A stretch of DNA of 64,000 nucleotides from positions 930,001 to 994,000 of the forward strand of contig NZ_JAQNDO010000001.1 in NCBI RefSeq assembly GCF_028369105.1, read 5' to 3'. Origin of the DNA: Polyangium mundeleinium. GTDB taxonomy: Bacteria; Myxococcota_A; Polyangia; Polyangiales; Polyangiaceae. Below are positions 56,348-63,159 of the stretch, in pieces. The notes beneath the pieces were generated by a model that was not told the origin of the DNA, ran no database searches, and was given only the letters and a program-made list of their open reading frames with translations. The position numbers and the translations under genes are program-made. Position 1 is the stretch's first letter; each line of letters opens with the position of its first letter.

Positions 56348-56923
56348 CTACTTCCAGCTCACCTCATAACGGCAACGCGACCCGCGAAGCTTTCGACAAA
56401 CCAAGGGTTCGAGGTGCGTGACGAGCGCGGTGCGTTCAAATCGCCGCGCCCAGGCCTGCATGATTCCGCGATCGAGATCGCAATTGTAGGGGGAATCCAC
56501 CTCCATGACGGCGCGGTGCCGGGAAACGGAGGCGCATTTGTAATGACCGATGCCCTCCCGCATCGTGCCCGTATGCGGATCGAACATGGGCACGCCGTTT
56601 TCGAGGTGATTGAGGTGGTATCCAGCGTCGAAGATTTGCATCGCCGTGGCGATGTCGGTCGCCCCGGGCGGAATGGCGGCGTGGTTGACGACCTGGCAGC
56701 CCATCTCGAAGGCTCTCTGCGGGCCGACGAGCAAGAGCAACTCGCCCAGCGCGGCAATGAGCTTGTCGAGCGGGCTGGCCGGCGGGATCTCGAGCTCGCC
56801 ACTCGGTCCCACCCGGGCGAGCCCGTATTTCGTGAAGACGGCGCGCGGGGCGTCGGGCACCGCTTTGAACGCGTCGAAGTAACTTTCGAGGATGGGGCGG
56901 GTGGCCGCGAATTCCGAGAGCAT
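56348..56923 (-). CDS. Uncharacterised conserved protein, paralogue A
   Basis: 191 residues that I cannot assign to a family. It shares its whole length with the product of 58124-58696: MLSEFAATRP at the start, YGLARVGPSGELE, then an almost identical C-terminal half ([55 protein letters not shown]) and the end CRYEVSWK. The CRYEVSW ending recalls 4-vinyl-reductase (V4R)-type ligand-binding domains, only as a guess. The start is the first Met matching the paralogue. Confidence 0.72.
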   Translation of the reverse strand: MLSEFAATRPILESYFDAFKAVPDAPRAVFTKYGLARVGPSGELEIPPASPLDKLIAALGELLLLVGPQRAFEMGCQVVNHAAIPPGATDIATAMQIFDAGYHLNHLENGVPMFDPHTGTMREGIGHYKCASVSRHRAVMEVDSPYNCDLDRGIMQAWARRFERTALVTHLEPLVCRKLRGSRCRYEVSWK

Positions 56924-57015
56924 CCCGCAGGATAGCGGACAGGCAGCGGAACACCAGGTCGGGCGCGGAGGCGGGCAGGCTCCCGCCACGGGGCGGGAGC
57001 GCCTACCCGCGCCGA

Positions 57016-57999
57016 TCACGCATTCAAGAGGCGCATGCTCACCTCGGCATAACGCGCCCCGGCCGCAGCGCCGCGGGGCATGACCGCGTCGAGGCGCGCG
57101 AGATCGTCCGCCGAGAGCGAGATGGCCTCTGCCGCGATGTTCTCTTCGAGGTAGCTCCGGCGCTTCGTGCCCGGAATGGGCACGATGAAATCACCCTGGA
57201 CGAGCACCCACGCGAGCGCGAGCTGCGACGCTCTCACGCCCTTTTCGGCGGCGATTGTCTCCACCTTGGCCACGAGGTCGAGGTTCTTCTGGAAGTTTTC
57301 CCCCTGGAAGCGCGGCGAGCTGCGGCGGAAATCGTCGGGCGCGAGGTCCTCGAAGCGCTTGATTTGCCCCGTGAGGAAGCCGCGGCCGAGGGGGCTGTAG
57401 GCGAGGAAGCCGATGCCGAGCTCGCGACAGACGGAAAGGATGTCGTCCTCCGGATCCCTCGTCCAGAGCGAGTATTCCGTCTGCACCGAGGCCAGCGGAT
57501 GGACCGCGTGCCCGCGCCGGAGCGTCGCCGCGCTCGCCTCCGAGAGGCCGATGGCCCGCACCTTGCCCGCCTTCACGAGGTCCGCCATCGCGCCCACGCT
57601 CTCCTCGATGGGCGTTTTGGGATCCACGCGGTGGAGCTGATACAGATCGATCACGTCGACGCGGAGGCGCCGGAGGCTCGCGTCGCACGAGTTCCGGATG
57701 TACGCGGGCGTGCCGTTGACGCCGCGCACGCGCGTGTCGTTCGGATCACGCACGATCCCGCATTTCGTCGCGAGGACGACCTCGCCTCTTCGGCCCGCGA
57801 TGGCGCGGCCGACGAGCTCTTCATTCGTGAATGGGCCATACATGTCCGCGGTGTCGAGCAGGTTGACGCCGAGATCGAGCGCGCGGTGAATCGTGGCAAT
57901 TGACTCGGCTTCGTCGCGCGGGCCGTAAAAATCGCTCATGCCCATGCAGCCGAGGCCGAGGGCAGAGACCGTGAGGGGACCGAGCTTACGCGTGTGCAT
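57016..57999 (-). CDS. Aldo/keto reductase
   Basis: 327-residue TIM-barrel NADPH oxidoreductase. It shows [13 protein letters not shown], the catalytic Asp/Tyr in [21 protein letters not shown] (Lys), [12 protein letters not shown] (His), [22 protein letters not shown] and [18 protein letters not shown] (cofactor loop). It resembles AKR13-type enzymes (pyridoxal reductase and YajO-like). AAGGAGCCCTC precedes the ATG at 57999. It lies between the two paralogous genes of unknown function, all on the minus strand. Confidence 0.94.
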
Positions 58000-58123
58000 G
58001 AGGGCTCCTTCTTGTCGCGCCGCATGGTAGCGCCCGCGCCGCATGCGCACCATCCCTCGGGGCCCCGTGGTCCCGGCTGGTTTCTTGCTTCTCGGCTGTG
58101 CCACGCAAACCAGCTGCACGGCT

Positions 58124-58696
58124 TTATTTCCAGCTCACCTCGTAACGGCACCGCGGGGCGCCGGTTTTTCGGCAGACCGAGGGCTCGATGTGCGTGACGA
58201 GCGCGGTGCGCTCGAACCGCCGCGCCCAGGCTTGCATGAGCCCGCGATCGAAATCGCAAGGGTAAGGCACGTCCACTTCCATGACGGCGCGGTGTCGCGA
58301 GATGGAGAGGCACCGGTAATGACCGATGCCTTCGCGCATCGTACCCGTCTGCGGGTCGAACATGGGGACGCCGTCCTCCAGGTGATTGAAATGGTATGCG
58401 GCGTCGAACATCTGCATCGCCGTGACGATGTCGGTCACGCCTGGCGGGCTCTCGGCGTACTTCATGCCCGCGACGCCCATCTCGAAGGCCTTCTGTGGAC
58501 CGATGAGCGCACACAGCTCGTTCTCCGCCCGGACGAGCTTGTCGATAGGGCACGTCTCGTGGAACTCGAACTCACCGCTCGGCCCTACGCGGCCGAGCCC
58601 GTACCTCGTATAGACGGTGCGCGGAGCGTCGACCGCTTTGAACGCGTCGAGATGGCCTCGCAAGGTGAGCCCGGTAATGGTGAATTTCGAGAGCAT
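58124..58696 (-). CDS. Uncharacterised conserved protein, paralogue B
   Basis: 190 residues, the partner of the product of 56348-56923. Conserved blocks are [117 protein letters not shown] and CRYEVSWK. The high match in the second half compared with the first suggests a constrained C-terminal domain. The function is unknown. Confidence 0.72.
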
Positions 58697-58754
58697 ACCG
58701 GTGAGCATAAAGGGAGGGTTCCCTGAAAACCAGGGCGGGCGCCCTTCGGCCGGA

Positions 58755-60350
58755 TTAGAGCCGCGAGGCGCGCACGGCCGGGGGCCCCTCGTCGAGCAGC
58801 TCCTGCAGCTTGTGCACCTCGACCGGTTTGACGAGGTGCACGTCGAACCCGGCGGCCAGCGCGGAGGTGCGTTGCTCGGGTGATCCATACCCCGTCAGCG
58901 CCACGAGCCAGAGGCCTCTTCCGCGGGGATCGGCGCGCAGCCGCCGCACCACCTCGAACCCGTCGATGCCCGGCAGGCCGATGTCGATGAGCGTCACGTC
59001 CGGCAGGAGCTCGAGCACTTTGCCGACGCCCACGATTCCATCCGAGGCGGCGTGGACCTCGTGGCCCCACATCTCGCAGAGATTGCCGAGCGCCTGCTGC
59101 GCGTCGACGTTGTCCTCCACGATGCAGACGCGCCGCCGGCGGAGCTCGGTGGTTCCTCGCTGCGACGCGCGTTCGCCCGCCTCGGCGACCCCGAGCAGCG
59201 GCAAGCGCACCTCGAACTCGGCGCCGTGCCCGATGCCCTCGCTGCGCGCCTCCACCTGGCCGCTGTGCAGCTCGACGAGCGTGCGCACGAGCGTGAGGCC
59301 GATCCCGAGGCCGCCACGCGAGCGCGCGAGCGTCACGCTGGCCTGCGCGAAGAGGCCGAAGATCATGGGAAGCGCGTCGGCCGCGATGCCGACGCCGTCG
59401 TCGCGCACCGTGACGCGCGCGAACGTGGCGCCGCCGGATGTGATCGGATCGAGGCGCATGCGGATGTGACCGCCGACGTCGGTGTACTTGCTCGCGTTGT
59501 CGAGCAGGTTCGTGAAGATCTGTTCGAGGCGCGTGATGTCGCCGCGGATCTGCACGGGCACGTCCGGCAGCGCGAGCGTGAGCGTCTGGCCGCGCGCGTT
59601 AGTGCTGCGCTCGCGTGTCGTGAGCACCACACGCGCGAGCAGGCTCTTCAGATCCACCGGCCCGAGGCGCAGGTCGATCTTGCCCTGCGTGACGCGCGAG
59701 ACGTCGAGCAGATCGTCGACGAGCCGCGCGAGGTGCACGGTCTGACGTCGCAGGACCTCGCGGGCGCGGCGCTCGCCCTTGTTCACGGCGTCGCGTTGTT
59801 CGAGCAGCGGCAGCGACGCGGTGATGGCCGCGAGCGGGTTGCGGAGCTCGTGCGCCAGCATGGCGAGGAACTCGTCCTTGCGACGGTCTGCCTCGGCCAG
59901 GCGATCGGCGCGCGCGCGGAGCTCACGCTCGGCCTGCGCGAGCCGCAGGAGCGAGCGCACGGTGGCCACGAGCTCGGTGGCCTCGAAGGGCTGCGTCAAA
60001 TAACCGTCGGCTCCGATGTCGAGCCCCTGCACCTTCTTGTCGAGCGAGACGAACGTCGCCGACGTGTGCAGGATCTTCACGCCCGCGGTGTCTGGGTTTG
60101 CCTTGATGCGCCGGCAGACTTCGAAGCCGTCGATGTCGGGCAGCTTGACGTCGAGCACCACCACGTCGGGCGGAGCGCGGTGGATCATCTCGAGCGCGTC
60201 CATGCCGCTCGACGCTTCGACGACGTCGAGGCCGGCCCTGCGGAGCATCGTCGTGCCGAGATAACGCGCGACCTCGTTGTCGTTCACGTTGAGGATCTTG
60301 CCCCCATGCTCCCGCGCCTTGCCGTTGTTCCGTTGCATGCGTCCCGTCAC
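58755..60350 (-). CDS. Hybrid histidine kinase: REC-HisKA-HATPase-REC
   Basis: 531 residues. N-terminal receiver (about 18-135) with VVVLDVKLPDIDGFE (phospho-Asp) and LTQPF; a coiled coil; HisKA with LAMLAHELRNPLAAI; HATPase with FTNLLDNASKYT, RDDGVGIAADALP and RGGLGIGLTLVRTLVE; then a second receiver (VTLIDIGLPGIDGFEV, VALTGYG, LVKPVE). There is no transmembrane segment, so it is cytoplasmic. It starts with a GTG overlapping the stop of the upstream kinase (GTGA) and is the third gene of the cobalamin/phosphorelay operon. Confidence 0.93.
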   Translation of the reverse strand: MTGRMQRNNGKAREHGGKILNVNDNEVARYLGTTMLRRAGLDVVEASSGMDALEMIHRAPPDVVVLDVKLPDIDGFEVCRRIKANPDTAGVKILHTSATFVSLDKKVQGLDIGADGYLTQPFEATELVATVRSLLRLAQAERELRARADRLAEADRRKDEFLAMLAHELRNPLAAITASLPLLEQRDAVNKGERRAREVLRRQTVHLARLVDDLLDVSRVTQGKIDLRLGPVDLKSLLARVVLTTRERSTNARGQTLTLALPDVPVQIRGDITRLEQIFTNLLDNASKYTDVGGHIRMRLDPITSGGATFARVTVRDDGVGIAADALPMIFGLFAQASVTLARSRGGLGIGLTLVRTLVELHSGQVEARSEGIGHGAEFEVRLPLLGVAEAGERASQRGTTELRRRRVCIVEDNVDAQQALGNLCEMWGHEVHAASDGIVGVGKVLELLPDVTLIDIGLPGIDGFEVVRRLRADPRGRGLWLVALTGYGSPEQRTSALAAGFDVHLVKPVEVHKLQELLDEGPPAVRASRL

Positions 60351-62365
60351 TCCGTGCTCGATGAGGTGCCCACACCTGCTTTCCGCAAGGCGTCGCGAAT
60401 GCGGTGGATGGCGAGTTCGCGCGAGAGGCTGTCCTTCGAGAGGATCGCCTCGGTCTCGGCCACGAGCCGCTCGCGTTCGGAGGGCTCGAGCACGTGGGAC
60501 GTGACGATCACCACGGGGATGCTCCGCGTGCGCGGGTCGGCCTTGAGGTCGTCGAGGACGTCGAACGCGGTGACGTCCTTCAGCAGGAAGTCGAGGAGGA
60601 TGACCTCGGGACGGAGCTTTTGGGCGAGCTCCACGCCTTCGGGCCCGGTGCGCGCGTCGATGAGCTCGTAGGGCGTCTTTTCGAGCAGCTTGCGCATGAG
60701 GTACCGGGCTCGCTCGTCGTCGTCGATGACGAGCAGCCGCGCCGGCGTGCCGGGCCGCGCCACGCTCTTCAGCTTGCGGAGCAGGTGATCCTGATCGACG
60801 GGCTTGAGCCAGAACTCGTCGGCGCCGAGCGCGCGCGCGCGTTGCTCCTTGTTGATGACGGTGACGACGAGCACGGGGATCTCGCGCGTCTCCGGGCTCT
60901 GCTTCACCTCGGCCAGGAAATCCCAGGTGGCCTCGCCTTCGAGCATGATGTCGAGCACGATCGCCGCAGGGCGGAACGTGCCGAGCTGTTTGCGCGCGTC
61001 GTCGACGGTGCGCGCGGGCACGACCTGAAAGCCCGCGAGCGAGAGGAACTTCTCGTAGATGAACATCGTCTTGCGATCGTCCTCGACGATGAGCACTGGC
61101 GAGCGCGAGGGATCGAGCGGGCGCGCGGCGAGCGTCGCGAGTTCGCGGACCTCGGGGTGCGTGGCGGGGATCGTGAGGGTGAAGGTGGATCCTTCGCCGA
61201 GTTTGCTCTCGACCGTGAGCGTCCCGCCGAGCAGCTCCGCCAGGCGCCGCGAGAGGGCGAGGCCGAGGCCGATGCCCTTGTGCTTGCGCTGGACGGGTCC
61301 GTCGATCTGCCCGAACTCCTCGAAGACGCGATCGAAGTGCTCGGCCGCGATCCCGATGCCCGTGTCCTGCACGCGGAAGACCACCTCGTCGCCGCGACGT
61401 ACGGCGCTCGCCACGACACGGCCCTGCTCGGTGAACTTGAGCGCGTTCGTGATGAGGTTGCGGAGAATCTGAGCGACCTTGCCCCGATCGGTCTCGAGCG
61501 TGATGTTGCCCTCGGGCAGCTCGAAGAGGAGATCCACGCCGGGGTGCGAGGGCAGGAGAGGCCGGAGCATGCCGCGCAGCGAGGCGAAGAAGTCGGAGAC
61601 GGTGAAGAGGTCCGCGCGCAGCGTGAGCTTGCCAGCCTCGGCCTTGGAGAGATCGAGGACGTCGTTGACGAGCTGCGAGAGCTCTTCGGCCGAGGTGCGG
61701 ATGAAGCGGATCTGTTTCTGCTGCTCCTCGCTGAGCGGGCCATCCGTGCCGTCGAGCAGAAGCTGGGACAGACCCAGGATCGAGTGCAGCGGCGTGCGGA
61801 ACTCGTGGCTCACGTTGGCGAGGACGCGACGGCGGACCTCGGAGGTGCGGCGGAGTGCGTCGGCCTTCTCTTCGATCTCGGCGTGGAGCGTGACAACGCC
61901 GCGGTTCGACTCGTCGAGCTCGCGGTTCGTGCGGGTGAGCTCCGCGTGTTGTTGCTCGATCTCGCGTTGTTGCCGCACGACCTCGCGGTTCAGGTTCACG
62001 ATCTCGGTGAGGGCGCGGCTGAGCTGCTCGATCGCGCCGCCGTAGCCCTCCGGGTACACGAAGCCGAAGAGCTCGACGCCGCCCTCGCCGTTCGGGCGCG
62101 CGCTGAATGACACGGTGGCGGGCTTGCCGTGGCAGAGGAGCGCGAGCTCCCAGCCGCGGATTTCACTCCCCACCGCGCGCGTGAGCAGCGCTTGGGTTTT
62201 TTCTTCGGTGCCGGGCACGGCGAGCGTGGTCAACGCGGCGCCGGGCTGCGCGCCGAGGAGGTTTCGCGCGCGCACGTCGGCCCACTGGATGACCCCGAGC
62301 GCGTCGCATGCGAGCGCGAGCTCACGGCTCTCGGAGAGCCAGCGCGCGTCCGTTCGTTCGTTCAT
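60347..62365 (-). CDS. Histidine kinase with two C-terminal receiver domains
   Basis: 672 residues without membrane segments. A PAS-like N-terminal region (1-110) is followed by a coiled coil and HisKA with LANVSHEFRTPLHSILG (His187), HATPase (ILRNLITNALKFT, VQDTGIGI, KGIGLGLALSRRLAEL), then two receivers: VLIVEDDRKTMFIYEKFLS with AIVLDIML, and LLVIDDDERARYLMRKLLE with VILLDFLLKD. GGAGGGACGGC precedes the ATG, which overlaps the stop of the cobalamin-binding protein gene (ATGA). The two receivers suggest that it phosphorylates, or is fed by, the next kinase. Confidence 0.93.
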   Translation of the reverse strand: MNERTDARWLSESRELALACDALGVIQWADVRARNLLGAQPGAALTTLAVPGTEEKTQALLTRAVGSEIRGWELALLCHGKPATVSFSARPNGEGGVELFGFVYPEGYGGAIEQLSRALTEIVNLNREVVRQQREIEQQHAELTRTNRELDESNRGVVTLHAEIEEKADALRRTSEVRRRVLANVSHEFRTPLHSILGLSQLLLDGTDGPLSEEQQKQIRFIRTSAEELSQLVNDVLDLSKAEAGKLTLRADLFTVSDFFASLRGMLRPLLPSHPGVDLLFELPEGNITLETDRGKVAQILRNLITNALKFTEQGRVVASAVRRGDEVVFRVQDTGIGIAAEHFDRVFEEFGQIDGPVQRKHKGIGLGLALSRRLAELLGGTLTVESKLGEGSTFTLTIPATHPEVRELATLAARPLDPSRSPVLIVEDDRKTMFIYEKFLSLAGFQVVPARTVDDARKQLGTFRPAAIVLDIMLEGEATWDFLAEVKQSPETREIPVLVVTVINKEQRARALGADEFWLKPVDQDHLLRKLKSVARPGTPARLLVIDDDERARYLMRKLLEKTPYELIDARTGPEGVELAQKLRPEVILLDFLLKDVTAFDVLDDLKADPRTRSIPVVIVTSHVLEPSERERLVAETEAILSKDSLSRELAIHRIRDALRKAGVGTSSSTE

Positions 62366-63159
62366 GCCGTCCCTCCGAGGGCCAGGTGCCGCACGTGGGA
62401 CGCCGGGCGTGCGACCAGCCGGCCCGCGACCTCGATGAGCTCGCGGGCGTCGCGGGCGAATTCGTCGGCGCCGAGCTCCCCCGCGGGATCGGCGAGCGTA
62501 CTGCACGCGGCGCCGCCGACGAGGATGGGCAGCGCGTCGCCGAAGTCGGACCGCAGCCGCGCCACGGTCATGCGCAGCGAGTGGAGGTTGAAGCTCATCG
62601 TGGCCGAGAGCGCGACGAGGTCGGGGCGCTCCCTGTGGATCATGGACACGAGCGATTCGGTGGGGACGTCGGCGCCGAGGAATCGAACCTCGTAGCCCGC
62701 GAGGTCGAGGGCGTCGGCGGCGAGGCGCGCGGGGAAATCGTGGTGCTCGCCCTCGACGCAGCCGAAGACGACGAGCTTGCCGATGAGCGGTGAGGCAGGC
62801 GAGAGCCGGTAGAGGTGCGCGAGAACGACCTGCGCGACCGCGGTCGCGAGGTGCTCGTCGGCCACGCTGATCCGGTTGTCCTGCCAGAGCAGCCCGATCT
62901 CGCGCTGGGCGGCCTCGAGGACGTGCTGGGACAGCTCCGCGGCCGGCGCGCCGCGCCCGACGCCTTCTTCCATCACCAGGCGCAATGCTTCACGCCGATC
63001 GCCTGCGAGCTGAGCTTTGACGAATTGCGCACACAGATCGTCGAGGTCCATGGGGCTTCGGAGGTGTTGCACGGAGGACGCCCGCGGCAGGGTCGAATGG
63101 CAGGCCCATCCGTCGATTTGCAACCCCTCGCCCTCGTGCGCTTTGCCCTCGGAAAACAT
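62362..63159 (-). CDS. Cobalamin-binding (B12-2 plus B12-binding) regulatory protein
   Basis: 265 residues: an N-terminal helical cap (about 37-120, VLEAAQREIGLLWQDNRISVADEH) and a Rossmann-like B12-binding domain (126-250, KLVVFGCVEGEHHDFPARLAADAL, GYEVRFLGADVPTESL, PILVGGAACS). The base-off ligand motif (D/E)xHxxG appears as E138-H-H140-D-F-P143, keeping the axial His but with Pro for Gly. Such proteins can sense light or oxygen through cobalamin. It heads the operon with two kinases, so it is probably their sensor. The start could also be the ATG at 63051. Confidence 0.88.
   Translation of the reverse strand: MFSEGKAHEGEGLQIDGWACHSTLPRASSVQHLRSPMDLDDLCAQFVKAQLAGDRREALRLVMEEGVGRGAPAAELSQHVLEAAQREIGLLWQDNRISVADEHLATAVAQVVLAHLYRLSPASPLIGKLVVFGCVEGEHHDFPARLAADALDLAGYEVRFLGADVPTESLVSMIHRERPDLVALSATMSFNLHSLRMTVARLRSDFGDALPILVGGAACSTLADPAGELGADEFARDARELIEVAGRLVARPASHVRHLALGGTA

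What the first reader, a model, noticed from the sequence alone, without database searches (positions are those of the whole stretch)
62362..63159. Cobalamin sensor coupled to a multi-receiver phosphorelay
Three genes overlap by four bases each (ATGA, GTGA): a B12-binding protein, HK-REC-REC and REC-HK-REC. None has a membrane segment or a DNA-binding output. This suggests a cytoplasmic light, redox or cobalamin sensor that passes phosphate through up to four receivers to an output protein elsewhere.
Basis: partly seen in the sequence, partly recalled or inferred. Interest (0 to 1): 0.62.

Follow-up and report, generated by a model that had tools for sequence, protein, structure and literature searches.

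The report
B12 light sensor with kinase pair
A soil bacterium (Polyangium) carries a small vitamin-B12 protein with the hallmarks of a green-light sensor, encoded together with two hybrid histidine kinases; related myxobacteria keep the same set, usually with a bilin-binding type of globin, so this looks like a conserved light-signalling pathway from which Polyangium has dropped the second pigment.

Summary
Confirmed and extended. Three overlapping minus-strand genes encode a stand-alone B12-binding protein, a PAS/coiled-coil HK-REC-REC and a REC-HK-REC. The B12 protein has every published light-signature element (GxxW, EH, GxxH, GxxxP; full set in 39 of 40 module loci); its predicted fold is closest to photocobilins. 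The trio is a unit: all three genes in 4 of 6 Polyangium genomes, none in the other 2; among 108 family genomes the kinase orthologue was found in 11, each time beside this B12 gene. The module also occurs in Myxococcus, Corallococcus, Pyxidicoccus, Archangium, Hyalangium and Nannocystis, while some B12 relatives lack kinases. In 34 of 40 loci a photocobilin-type globin lies beside the B12 gene, sometimes with heme oxygenase or bilin reductase. Polyangium has no linked globin and neither enzyme (0 of 6 genomes), and its branch nests among globin-bearing ones: probable loss of the bilin arm. Catalytic residues of both kinases are present; three receivers are canonical, one lacks the switch lysine. 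Best reading: an adenosylcobalamin green-light receptor that docks on the first kinase and sets a phosphorelay with output elsewhere. Light response, docking and phosphoflow are untested. New variant of a known kind.

The parts
62362..63051 (-). Stand-alone B12-binding protein, 229 aa (alternative upstream ATG at 63159 adds 36 aa)
   Evidence: PF02607 + PF02310; AF2 model pLDDT 93.5; top PDB match photocobilin 8j2w, Foldseek E 1.6e-16 and VIA-align Z 26.2
62884..62895 (-). GxxW element, G53-L-L-W56 (cap over the adenosyl group in CarH-type domains)
   Evidence: G and W in 40 of 40 module B12 proteins, window included; signature from PMC11796333
62851..62856 (-). EH element, E66-H67, at W-x9-EH spacing
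   Evidence: 40 of 40 module proteins
62740..62751 (-). GxxH element, G101-E-H-H104 (H104 = predicted lower cobalt ligand)
   Evidence: H104 40 of 40, G101 39 of 40
62662..62676 (-). GxxxP element, G126-A-D-V-P130
   Evidence: 40 of 40 for both G and P
60347..62365 (-). Hybrid histidine kinase PAS/coiled-coil-HK-REC-REC, 672 aa
   Evidence: HisKA, HATPase_c, 2 x Response_reg; kinase residues present in 39 of 39 loci scored
62054..62326 (-). PAS-fold domain of the first kinase (no Pfam match; recognised by structure)
   Evidence: AF2 model, mean pLDDT 82.5; Foldseek top hit PAS 8px4, E 8.8e-6
61859..62044 (-). Long coiled-coil (signalling helix); proposed docking surface for the B12 protein
   Evidence: helix 108-169 in the model; invariant polar positions R127, Q132, S153, H161 in 30 rows; docking is inference from AppA-PpsR/AerR-CrtJ
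58755..60350 (-). Hybrid histidine kinase REC-HK-REC, 531 aa (alternative ATG at 60338)
   Evidence: 2 x Response_reg, HisKA, HATPase_c; kinase residues present in 39 of 39 loci scored
59958..60296 (-). N-terminal receiver of REC-HK-REC, non-canonical (Asn in acidic pocket, Gln at switch-Lys position)
   Evidence: Asn 38 of 39; Gln 35 and Glu 3 of 39, one gap

Best explanation
The B12 protein is an adenosylcobalamin photoreceptor domain without its own output. In the dark it holds AdoCbl (lower ligand H104; W56 and E66/H67 around the adenosyl group). Green light breaks the Co-C bond, the adenosyl group leaves and the four-helix cap moves. The residue after W56 is Gln, not the His used by Thermus CarH, so the light state should resemble SasPcob/CtMerR rather than the bis-His state of CarH. 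The B12 protein sits on the PAS/coiled-coil of the partner kinase (as the related AppA domain sits on the linker helix of PpsR) and switches autophosphorylation; the phosphate reaches the two receivers of that kinase and, through the second kinase with its non-canonical input receiver, a final receiver and an output encoded elsewhere. In most relatives a photocobilin-type globin, probably bilin-bound, adds a second pigment; Polyangium lost that arm together with heme oxygenase. Shown by computation: signature, fold, linkage, presence of catalytic residues, absence of bilin genes. Inferred: cobalamin binding, light response, docking, direction of phosphate flow.
For: Full GxxW/EH/GxxH/GxxxP signature in the window and in 39 of 40 module loci; in the same comparison 11 of 16 HTH-B12 (CarH-like) proteins have it and 6 enzyme-type B12 proteins (my label) lack W and EH. 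Four proteins bearing the signature were shown experimentally to respond to green light (PMC11796333, Results read). Nearest sequences and structures are photocobilins. Best NCBIfam model is CarH, far below its cut-off. Sister operons insert heme oxygenase, globin and ferredoxin-dependent bilin reductase, and the globin profile (its second half) matches only photocobilin bilin domains in the PDB at E <= 0.1. Heme oxygenase: 31 of 32 genomes whose B12 locus has the globin, 0 of 4 with a globin-less operon (Fisher 8e-5 on non-independent genomes), 0 of 6 Polyangium. Two-way co-occurrence of B12 gene and kinase in 11 of 11 genomes. Kinase residues and three receivers kept. Fused globin-B12 proteins also sit directly before kinases in other phyla. 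A methylmalonyl-CoA mutase in the same genome suggests AdoCbl is available.
Against: No spectrum, binding or phosphotransfer data. The signature is also found outside kinase operons (22 of 31 globin+B12 loci without a kinase downstream, 13 of 19 other B12 loci) and does not prove photoreception; AerR and AppA relatives bind other cobalamin forms or heme. Loss of the bilin arm could mean that the Polyangium version changed its signal. Relatives with the B12 gene but no kinase pair exist inside (L040, L142, L157, L162) and just outside (L158, L160) the module's part of the tree. One globin-bearing genome lacks heme oxygenase (G343) and one globin-less copy (L159) lies in a genome that has it, beside a second, globin-bearing module. 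No Hpt or output gene in the trio. P. fumosum has a frame break between the two receivers of the first kinase, real or a sequencing error.
Confidence: 0.66

Rival explanations
1. The B12 protein is a sensor of adenosylcobalamin supply or of the redox/methylation state of the corrinoid, not of light; the kinases report cofactor status.
For: Same fold as corrinoid proteins (VIA-align Z 24.1 for 3ezx, 23.9 for MetH 1bmt); Polyangium lacks the bilin genes that most strongly tie the operon to light.
Against: W56, E66 and H67, absent from the 6 enzyme-type proteins compared, are kept in 40 of 40 module loci, four Polyangium among them; relatives are linked to bilin genes.
Confidence: 0.2
2. Polyangium still uses a bilin: another globin encoded elsewhere takes the place of the missing partner, and the bilin comes from an unrecognised or non-homologous heme-degrading enzyme.
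For: A distant relative of the globin profile exists in 6 of 6 Polyangium genomes (E about 1e-8; G000:C1:6777488, L200); it keeps RGM of the RGMC motif, and the motif is altered in some globins of intact operons too (3 of 10 rows of A3 depart from RGMC). One search scored 150 of 195-265 candidates per genome, so a better globin is not strictly excluded.
Against: That globin is also in the two Polyangium genomes without the trio; heme oxygenase (PF01126) and bilin reductase (PF05996) were found in none of the 6 genomes.
Confidence: 0.09
3. The B12 protein is a corrinoid methyl carrier of one-carbon metabolism that merely neighbours a two-component system.
For: Weak NCBIfam matches to MtbC, MtgC and pyl_corrinoid.
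Against: All below the family cut-offs (54.5 against 215.3 for TIGR02370); no methyltransferase in the set; two-way conservation with the kinase.
Confidence: 0.04

Closest known systems
Photocobilins (SasPcob 8j2w/8j2x, AbDPcob 8j2y; PMC10979010)
   Same: Closest structures (Z 26.2 and 25.9) and sequences; same signature; SasPcob also has Gln after the Trp (PMC11796333); stand-alone form shown in the paper to act on a separate enzyme domain by protein contact (passages)
   Different: No bilin-binding globin domain in the window protein and none linked to it; partner is a histidine kinase, not a cyclase
Pre-2 FDBR / B12-binding / BBAG-2 three-gene cluster of Myxococcales (PMC10151467)
   Same: Sister operons of the window trio hold B12 gene, globin (RGMC in 7 of 10 aligned) and, in some, bilin reductase or heme oxygenase
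   Different: Window lacks globin and reductase; 'histidine kinase' does not occur in the paper's main text (find searches)
CarH/LitR repressors
   Same: W-x9-EH, GxxH, GxxxP and cobalamin-domain fold (Z about 19.6); best NCBIfam model
   Different: No MerR HTH; Gln replaces the His that forms the bis-His light state; output is a phosphorelay
AerR/PpaA and AppA SCHIC acting on CrtJ/PpsR (7te2, 4hh3; PMC9144470)
   Same: Stand-alone B12 protein (AerR) or related domain that binds, or is modelled to bind, a PAS/linker-helix partner (passages); fold Z 21.8 for AerR; 4hh3 chain A also appears among matches of the kinase PAS model
   Different: Partner there is a DNA-binding regulator in photosynthetic bacteria, not a kinase

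Membership tests
Light-responsive cobalamin-binding domains (SignatureFinder signature) | GxxW, EH, GxxH and GxxxP in the cobalamin domain | tested here: met
   All four in the window protein; full set in 39 of 40 module loci
Light-responsive cobalamin-binding domains (SignatureFinder signature) | AdoCbl binding and green-light spectral change | not testable with these tools
   Needs purified protein
CarH | N-terminal MerR-type DNA-binding domain | tested here: not met
   No HTH in Pfam; NCBIfam CarH 63.6 bits against cut-off 400
Photocobilin | B12 domain joined to a bilin-binding globin-like domain | tested here: not met
   The 229-aa protein is filled by the two B12 domains; globin profile finds none at the locus
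Pre-2/BBAG-2/B12 bilin cluster | B12 protein nested among those linked to globin and bilin genes | tested here: met
   Window clade lies in a starred (96) 8-row clade whose other four rows (L091, L092, L093, L126) have globin plus HO and/or FDBR at the locus (quick tree, SH-aLRT only)
Pre-2/BBAG-2/B12 bilin cluster | Ferredoxin-dependent bilin reductase and globin genes present | tested here: not met
   FDBR 0 of 6 genus genomes; no linked globin in 4 of 4 Polyangium with the trio
Corrinoid methyltransferase carrier (MtbC/pyl_corrinoid) | Score over the curated family cut-off | tested here: not met
   TIGR02370 54.5 against 215.3; MtbC 56.1 against 350
Hybrid histidine kinase | H-box His, N/G boxes and receiver Asp present | tested here: met
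   Kinase residues 39 of 39 in both kinases; receiver Asp in 37-38 of 39, the rest gaps apart from one Asn
Multistep phosphorelay | Hpt or other His intermediate, and a terminal output regulator | tested here: inconclusive
   No Hpt or output domain within the trio; the rest of the genome was not searched for partners

The most novel reading that the evidence does not exclude
Myxobacteria possess an undescribed two-pigment photosensory phosphorelay: a stand-alone AdoCbl photoreceptor and a bilin globin jointly gate a dedicated PAS-hybrid kinase / REC-HK-REC pair. Polyangium (and, separately, one Polyangiaceae MAG) has shed the bilin arm with heme oxygenase and runs it on B12 alone, a natural one-pigment version that shows what each pigment contributes. 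(Probability lowered from 0.50 to 0.47 on recheck, because the motif Cys is missing in the Myxococcus L131 and Archangium L137 globins of alignment A3, so bilin binding there is less sure.)
Probability: 0.47. Interest if true: 0.74.

Novelty: new variant of a known kind. Interest (0 to 1): 0.64.

Why it matters
The B12/BBAG-2 cluster of myxobacteria was reported with no kinase pathway in the text I could search. The conserved kinase pair supplies a candidate, present in tractable genera including a Myxococcus xanthus strain (L125). M. xanthus has no bacteriophytochrome (PMC12288465, section read), so this would be a further route from light to behaviour. The output domains listed for light-responsive cobalamin domains do not include histidine kinases (PMC11796333 Fig. 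9 legend; 'kinase' 0 times in its main text). A B12-gated kinase would also be a green-light optogenetic input independent of DNA binding. The Polyangium version separates the cobalamin arm from the bilin arm in nature.

Tried and rejected
Rejected: that the trio is a chance neighbourhood (two-way co-occurrence; concordant presence/absence); that the N-terminal region of the first kinase is a hidden globin (the model is a PAS fold with a coiled coil); that the PAS is a heme or flavin sensor: no His or Cys in its part of the 30-row alignment is invariant or nearly so, which makes this less likely but does not exclude it; that the downstream 200/204-aa proteins are the output: they have no Pfam or NCBIfam match, were found among my loci only in Polyangium, and one copy persists in a Polyangium genome without the trio.

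Led nowhere or limited: fold Z alone does not separate photoreceptor from enzyme corrinoid domains. A single globin sequence found no relative in the PDB although the 10-row profile did. One downstream query ('p4') was out of frame and was redone in frame. In the quick tree the label 'module' needs 7 changes (starred branches force 2), several long branches meet, and 8 non-module rows lie in the module's part: L040, L142, L157, L162 without a kinase pair in several kb, and L135, L140, L165, L178 on short contigs or near a contig end; one origin of the module is neither shown nor excluded. Greedy ORF calling hid several globin genes; the six-frame domain map replaced it. The domain profiles (REC, HK, B12, globin, FDBR, HO) were built here from window and locus sequences; Pfam confirmed FDBR in L091, L092, L095, L126, L142, L162, L178 and heme oxygenase in L091.

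Rows left out of counts: the module set of 40 loci (window included) was listed by hand and holds L123 (first kinase incomplete) and L149 (cut by contig end); nine loci that duplicate others were dropped. The catalytic count covers 39 loci per kinase: first kinase not scored in L123, second not in L149. The heme-oxygenase count covers 36 genomes that I chose; the genomes of L091/L121, L139 and L149 were not given. G177 there has B12 and globin but no kinase pair. The published photoglobin paper (PMC8717448), the 2016 TIBS and the 2017 Annual Review articles were not held and may already describe kinase links of globin-B12 proteins.
Full report
WHAT IS THERE. The window is bases 930001-994000 of contig C1 of a 13.25-Mb genome; its nearest named relatives are Polyangium. 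On the minus strand lie a B12-binding gene (62362-63051, or from 63159), HK-REC-REC (60347-62365) and REC-HK-REC (58755-60350), with ATGA and GTGA overlaps. Pfam gives B12-binding_2 + B12-binding, then HisKA/HATPase_c/2 receivers, then receiver/HisKA/HATPase_c/receiver. No membrane stretch. Against three other Polyangium the three genes show dN/dS 0.17-0.27, so they are under purifying selection.

IT IS A UNIT. In the genus, all three genes occur in the same 4 of 6 genomes and none in the other 2. One of those two (G284) has the flanking AlkB-like and aldo/keto reductase genes at the corresponding place with no match to the trio between them, only 36-59-bp matches to the end of AlkB and the intergenic stretch; the site in the other (G286) was not found. 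In 108 genomes of the family, the HK-REC-REC orthologue (E <= 1e-120; 11 candidates scored per genome) occurs in 11, each time within about 1.6 kb of the B12 gene, and these are exactly the 11 genomes whose B12 match is 172 bits or more. A scan of named genomes confirmed 104 loci and returned the best 80. With the genome-search loci and without duplicates, 40 loci form the module: B12 gene first in 32, kinases first in 3, kinases divergent in 5 (all Nannocystis). Named genera: Polyangium, Myxococcus (including an M. xanthus strain), Corallococcus, Pyxidicoccus, Archangium, Hyalangium, Nannocystis, a Labilithrix MAG, and other Polyangiaceae and Myxococcaceae MAGs. Against this: L040, L142, L157 and L162 fall in the module's part of the tree and L158 and L160 just outside it, and none shows the kinase pair in the DNA held. 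The linkage is firm within the myxobacterial module, not for the whole B12 family.

THE B12 PROTEIN LOOKS LIKE A PHOTORECEPTOR. SignatureFinder (PMC11796333; Results read) ties GxxW, EH, GxxH and GxxxP to green-light response. The window has GLLW, EH (W-x9-EH), GEHH and GADVP. The full set is in 39 of 40 module loci, and W, E, H and the lower-ligand His in 40 of 40. In the other groups of the same comparison the full set is in 19 of 25 (other B12 with a kinase downstream), 22 of 31 (globin + B12, no kinase downstream), 11 of 16 (HTH-B12) and 13 of 19 (rest); six enzyme-type members of the last group (label mine) lack W and EH. The residue after W is Gln in 37 of 40 module loci and Glu in 3, so the bis-His light state of Thermus CarH is not expected; the paper notes Gln there in SasPcob. 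The AlphaFold2 model (pLDDT 93.5) matches photocobilin 8j2w best (Foldseek E 1.6e-16; Z 26.2, rmsd 2.1 A over 205 residues). Enzyme corrinoid domains also score Z 24, so fold alone does not decide; the signature does the work.

BILIN GENES IN SISTER OPERONS. In L091 the order is heme oxygenase, B12, globin, ferredoxin-dependent bilin reductase, kinases; L092, L095 and L126 also carry the reductase. A heme oxygenase lies near the B12 gene in 8 of 40 loci and a reductase in 4. In 34 of 40 a globin gene lies within 1.5 kb of the B12 gene; the six without are the four Polyangium, L094 (a Polyangiaceae MAG) and L159 (a second copy in Nannocystis pusilla). The stand-alone globin usually gives two profile hits; of ten aligned, seven carry RGMC, the others HGMC, RGMA and RGMS, the last two from Myxococcus and Archangium. 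The profile's second half finds only photocobilin bilin domains in the PDB. RGMC is the motif reported for BBAG-2 biliverdin globins (PMC10151467; passages read), where a bilin reductase, B12 protein and BBAG-2 globin were described as a three-gene cluster; 'histidine kinase' does not occur in its main text.

POLYANGIUM HAS DROPPED THE BILIN ARM. Bilin reductase 0 of 6 genomes, heme oxygenase 0 of 6, no globin at the locus. Of 36 genomes with related loci that I gave, 31 have heme oxygenase; the five without are three Polyangium, the MAG with globin-less L094, and one MAG whose operon keeps the globin (G343). So 31 of 32 globin-bearing and 0 of 4 globin-less; Fisher 8e-5 overstates this because relatives are not independent. 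Two events, Polyangium and the MAG, fit; the third globin-less copy, L159, lies in a genome with heme oxygenase and a second, globin-bearing module. In the quick tree the Polyangium branch sits in a starred clade of eight whose other four rows all have the globin, and globin presence changes three times in the module. Loss is the simpler reading. A distant globin relative (RGMP) is in all six Polyangium, including the two without the trio (150 candidates scored per genome).

THE KINASES. The first kinase begins with a PAS fold and a long coiled coil, whose first 115 residues are 28-50% identical to the window outside Polyangium. Its kinase residues are present in 39 of 39 loci and both receivers are canonical in nearly all. 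The second kinase has its residues in 39 of 39; its last receiver is canonical, its first has Asn in the acidic pocket (38 of 39) and Gln (35) or Glu (3) for the switch Lys. So three ordinary receivers and one atypical one, kept that way across the group, which suggests a reading or docking role.

MECHANISM. AppA's B12-like domain binds the helix between PAS domains of PpsR, and AerR is modelled on the same site of CrtJ (PMC9144470; passages read). By analogy the B12 protein should sit on the PAS/coiled-coil of HK-REC-REC and change its activity on photolysis. A stand-alone photocobilin changing the activity of a separate enzyme domain by contact is published (PMC10979010; passages and one section read). 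Direction of regulation, phosphate path and output are unknown; the atypical receiver as the entry point of the second kinase is a guess.

NOVELTY AND LIMITS. Not CarH (no HTH), not a photocobilin (no globin domain), not the known bilin cluster in full. Ten literature searches listed no paper that I recognised as describing a kinase partner for a stand-alone B12 photoreceptor of this type; I saw listings, and passages or sections of seven papers (PMC11796333, PMC10979010, PMC10151467, PMC9144470, PMC9614035, PMC7694542, PMC12288465); in PMC9304148 the find terms gave no passage. The library lacks key papers, including the photoglobin paper whose title names signal transduction. I therefore call it a new variant of a known kind.

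Noticed in passing
L142, L162, L178: B12 - globin - ferredoxin-dependent bilin reductase clusters without kinases in Gemmatimonadaceae and Thermomicrobiaceae MAGs, outside the Myxococcales to which pre-2 reductases were said to be largely confined. Whether they are pre-2 was not tested.
   Followed up: partly
L161, L163, L164, L167, L171, L172, L173, L175, L176, L179: Fused globin-B12 (photocobilin-like) proteins directly before a histidine kinase in MAGs or genomes titled Ignavibacteria, Albibeggiatoa, Rhodopirellula, Opitutae, Bacillota, Paenibacillus, Sulfuritalea, Gemmatimonadaceae and Spirochaetes; kinase confirmed by Pfam in L161, L167, L172, L175, L176.
   Followed up: partly
L098, L100-L104, L106: Another polyangial branch pairs globin-B12 proteins (no globin seen in L103) with HK and REC-HK genes and stands apart from the module in the tree: a parallel arrangement.
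   Followed up: partly
L118 (Polyangium fumosum), first kinase gene: Reading frame broken between the two receivers of HK-REC-REC; real or a sequencing error.
   Followed up: partly
G000:C1:6777488-6777742 (L200): Divergent relative of the BBAG-2-like globin with RGMP instead of RGMC, in all six Polyangium genomes.
   Followed up: partly
window 56348-58726, minus strand: Two related proteins of about 200 aa with no Pfam or NCBIfam match flank an aldo/keto reductase just downstream of the trio; one or two copies also near the trio in other Polyangium.
   Followed up: partly
L159 and L136: Nannocystis pusilla DSM 53165 carries two modules, one with heme oxygenase, B12 and globin, one without globin.
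   Followed up: no
G000:C1:222074-222526 (L059): The same genome also encodes a MerR-B12 (CarH-like) regulator with W-x9-EH.
   Followed up: no
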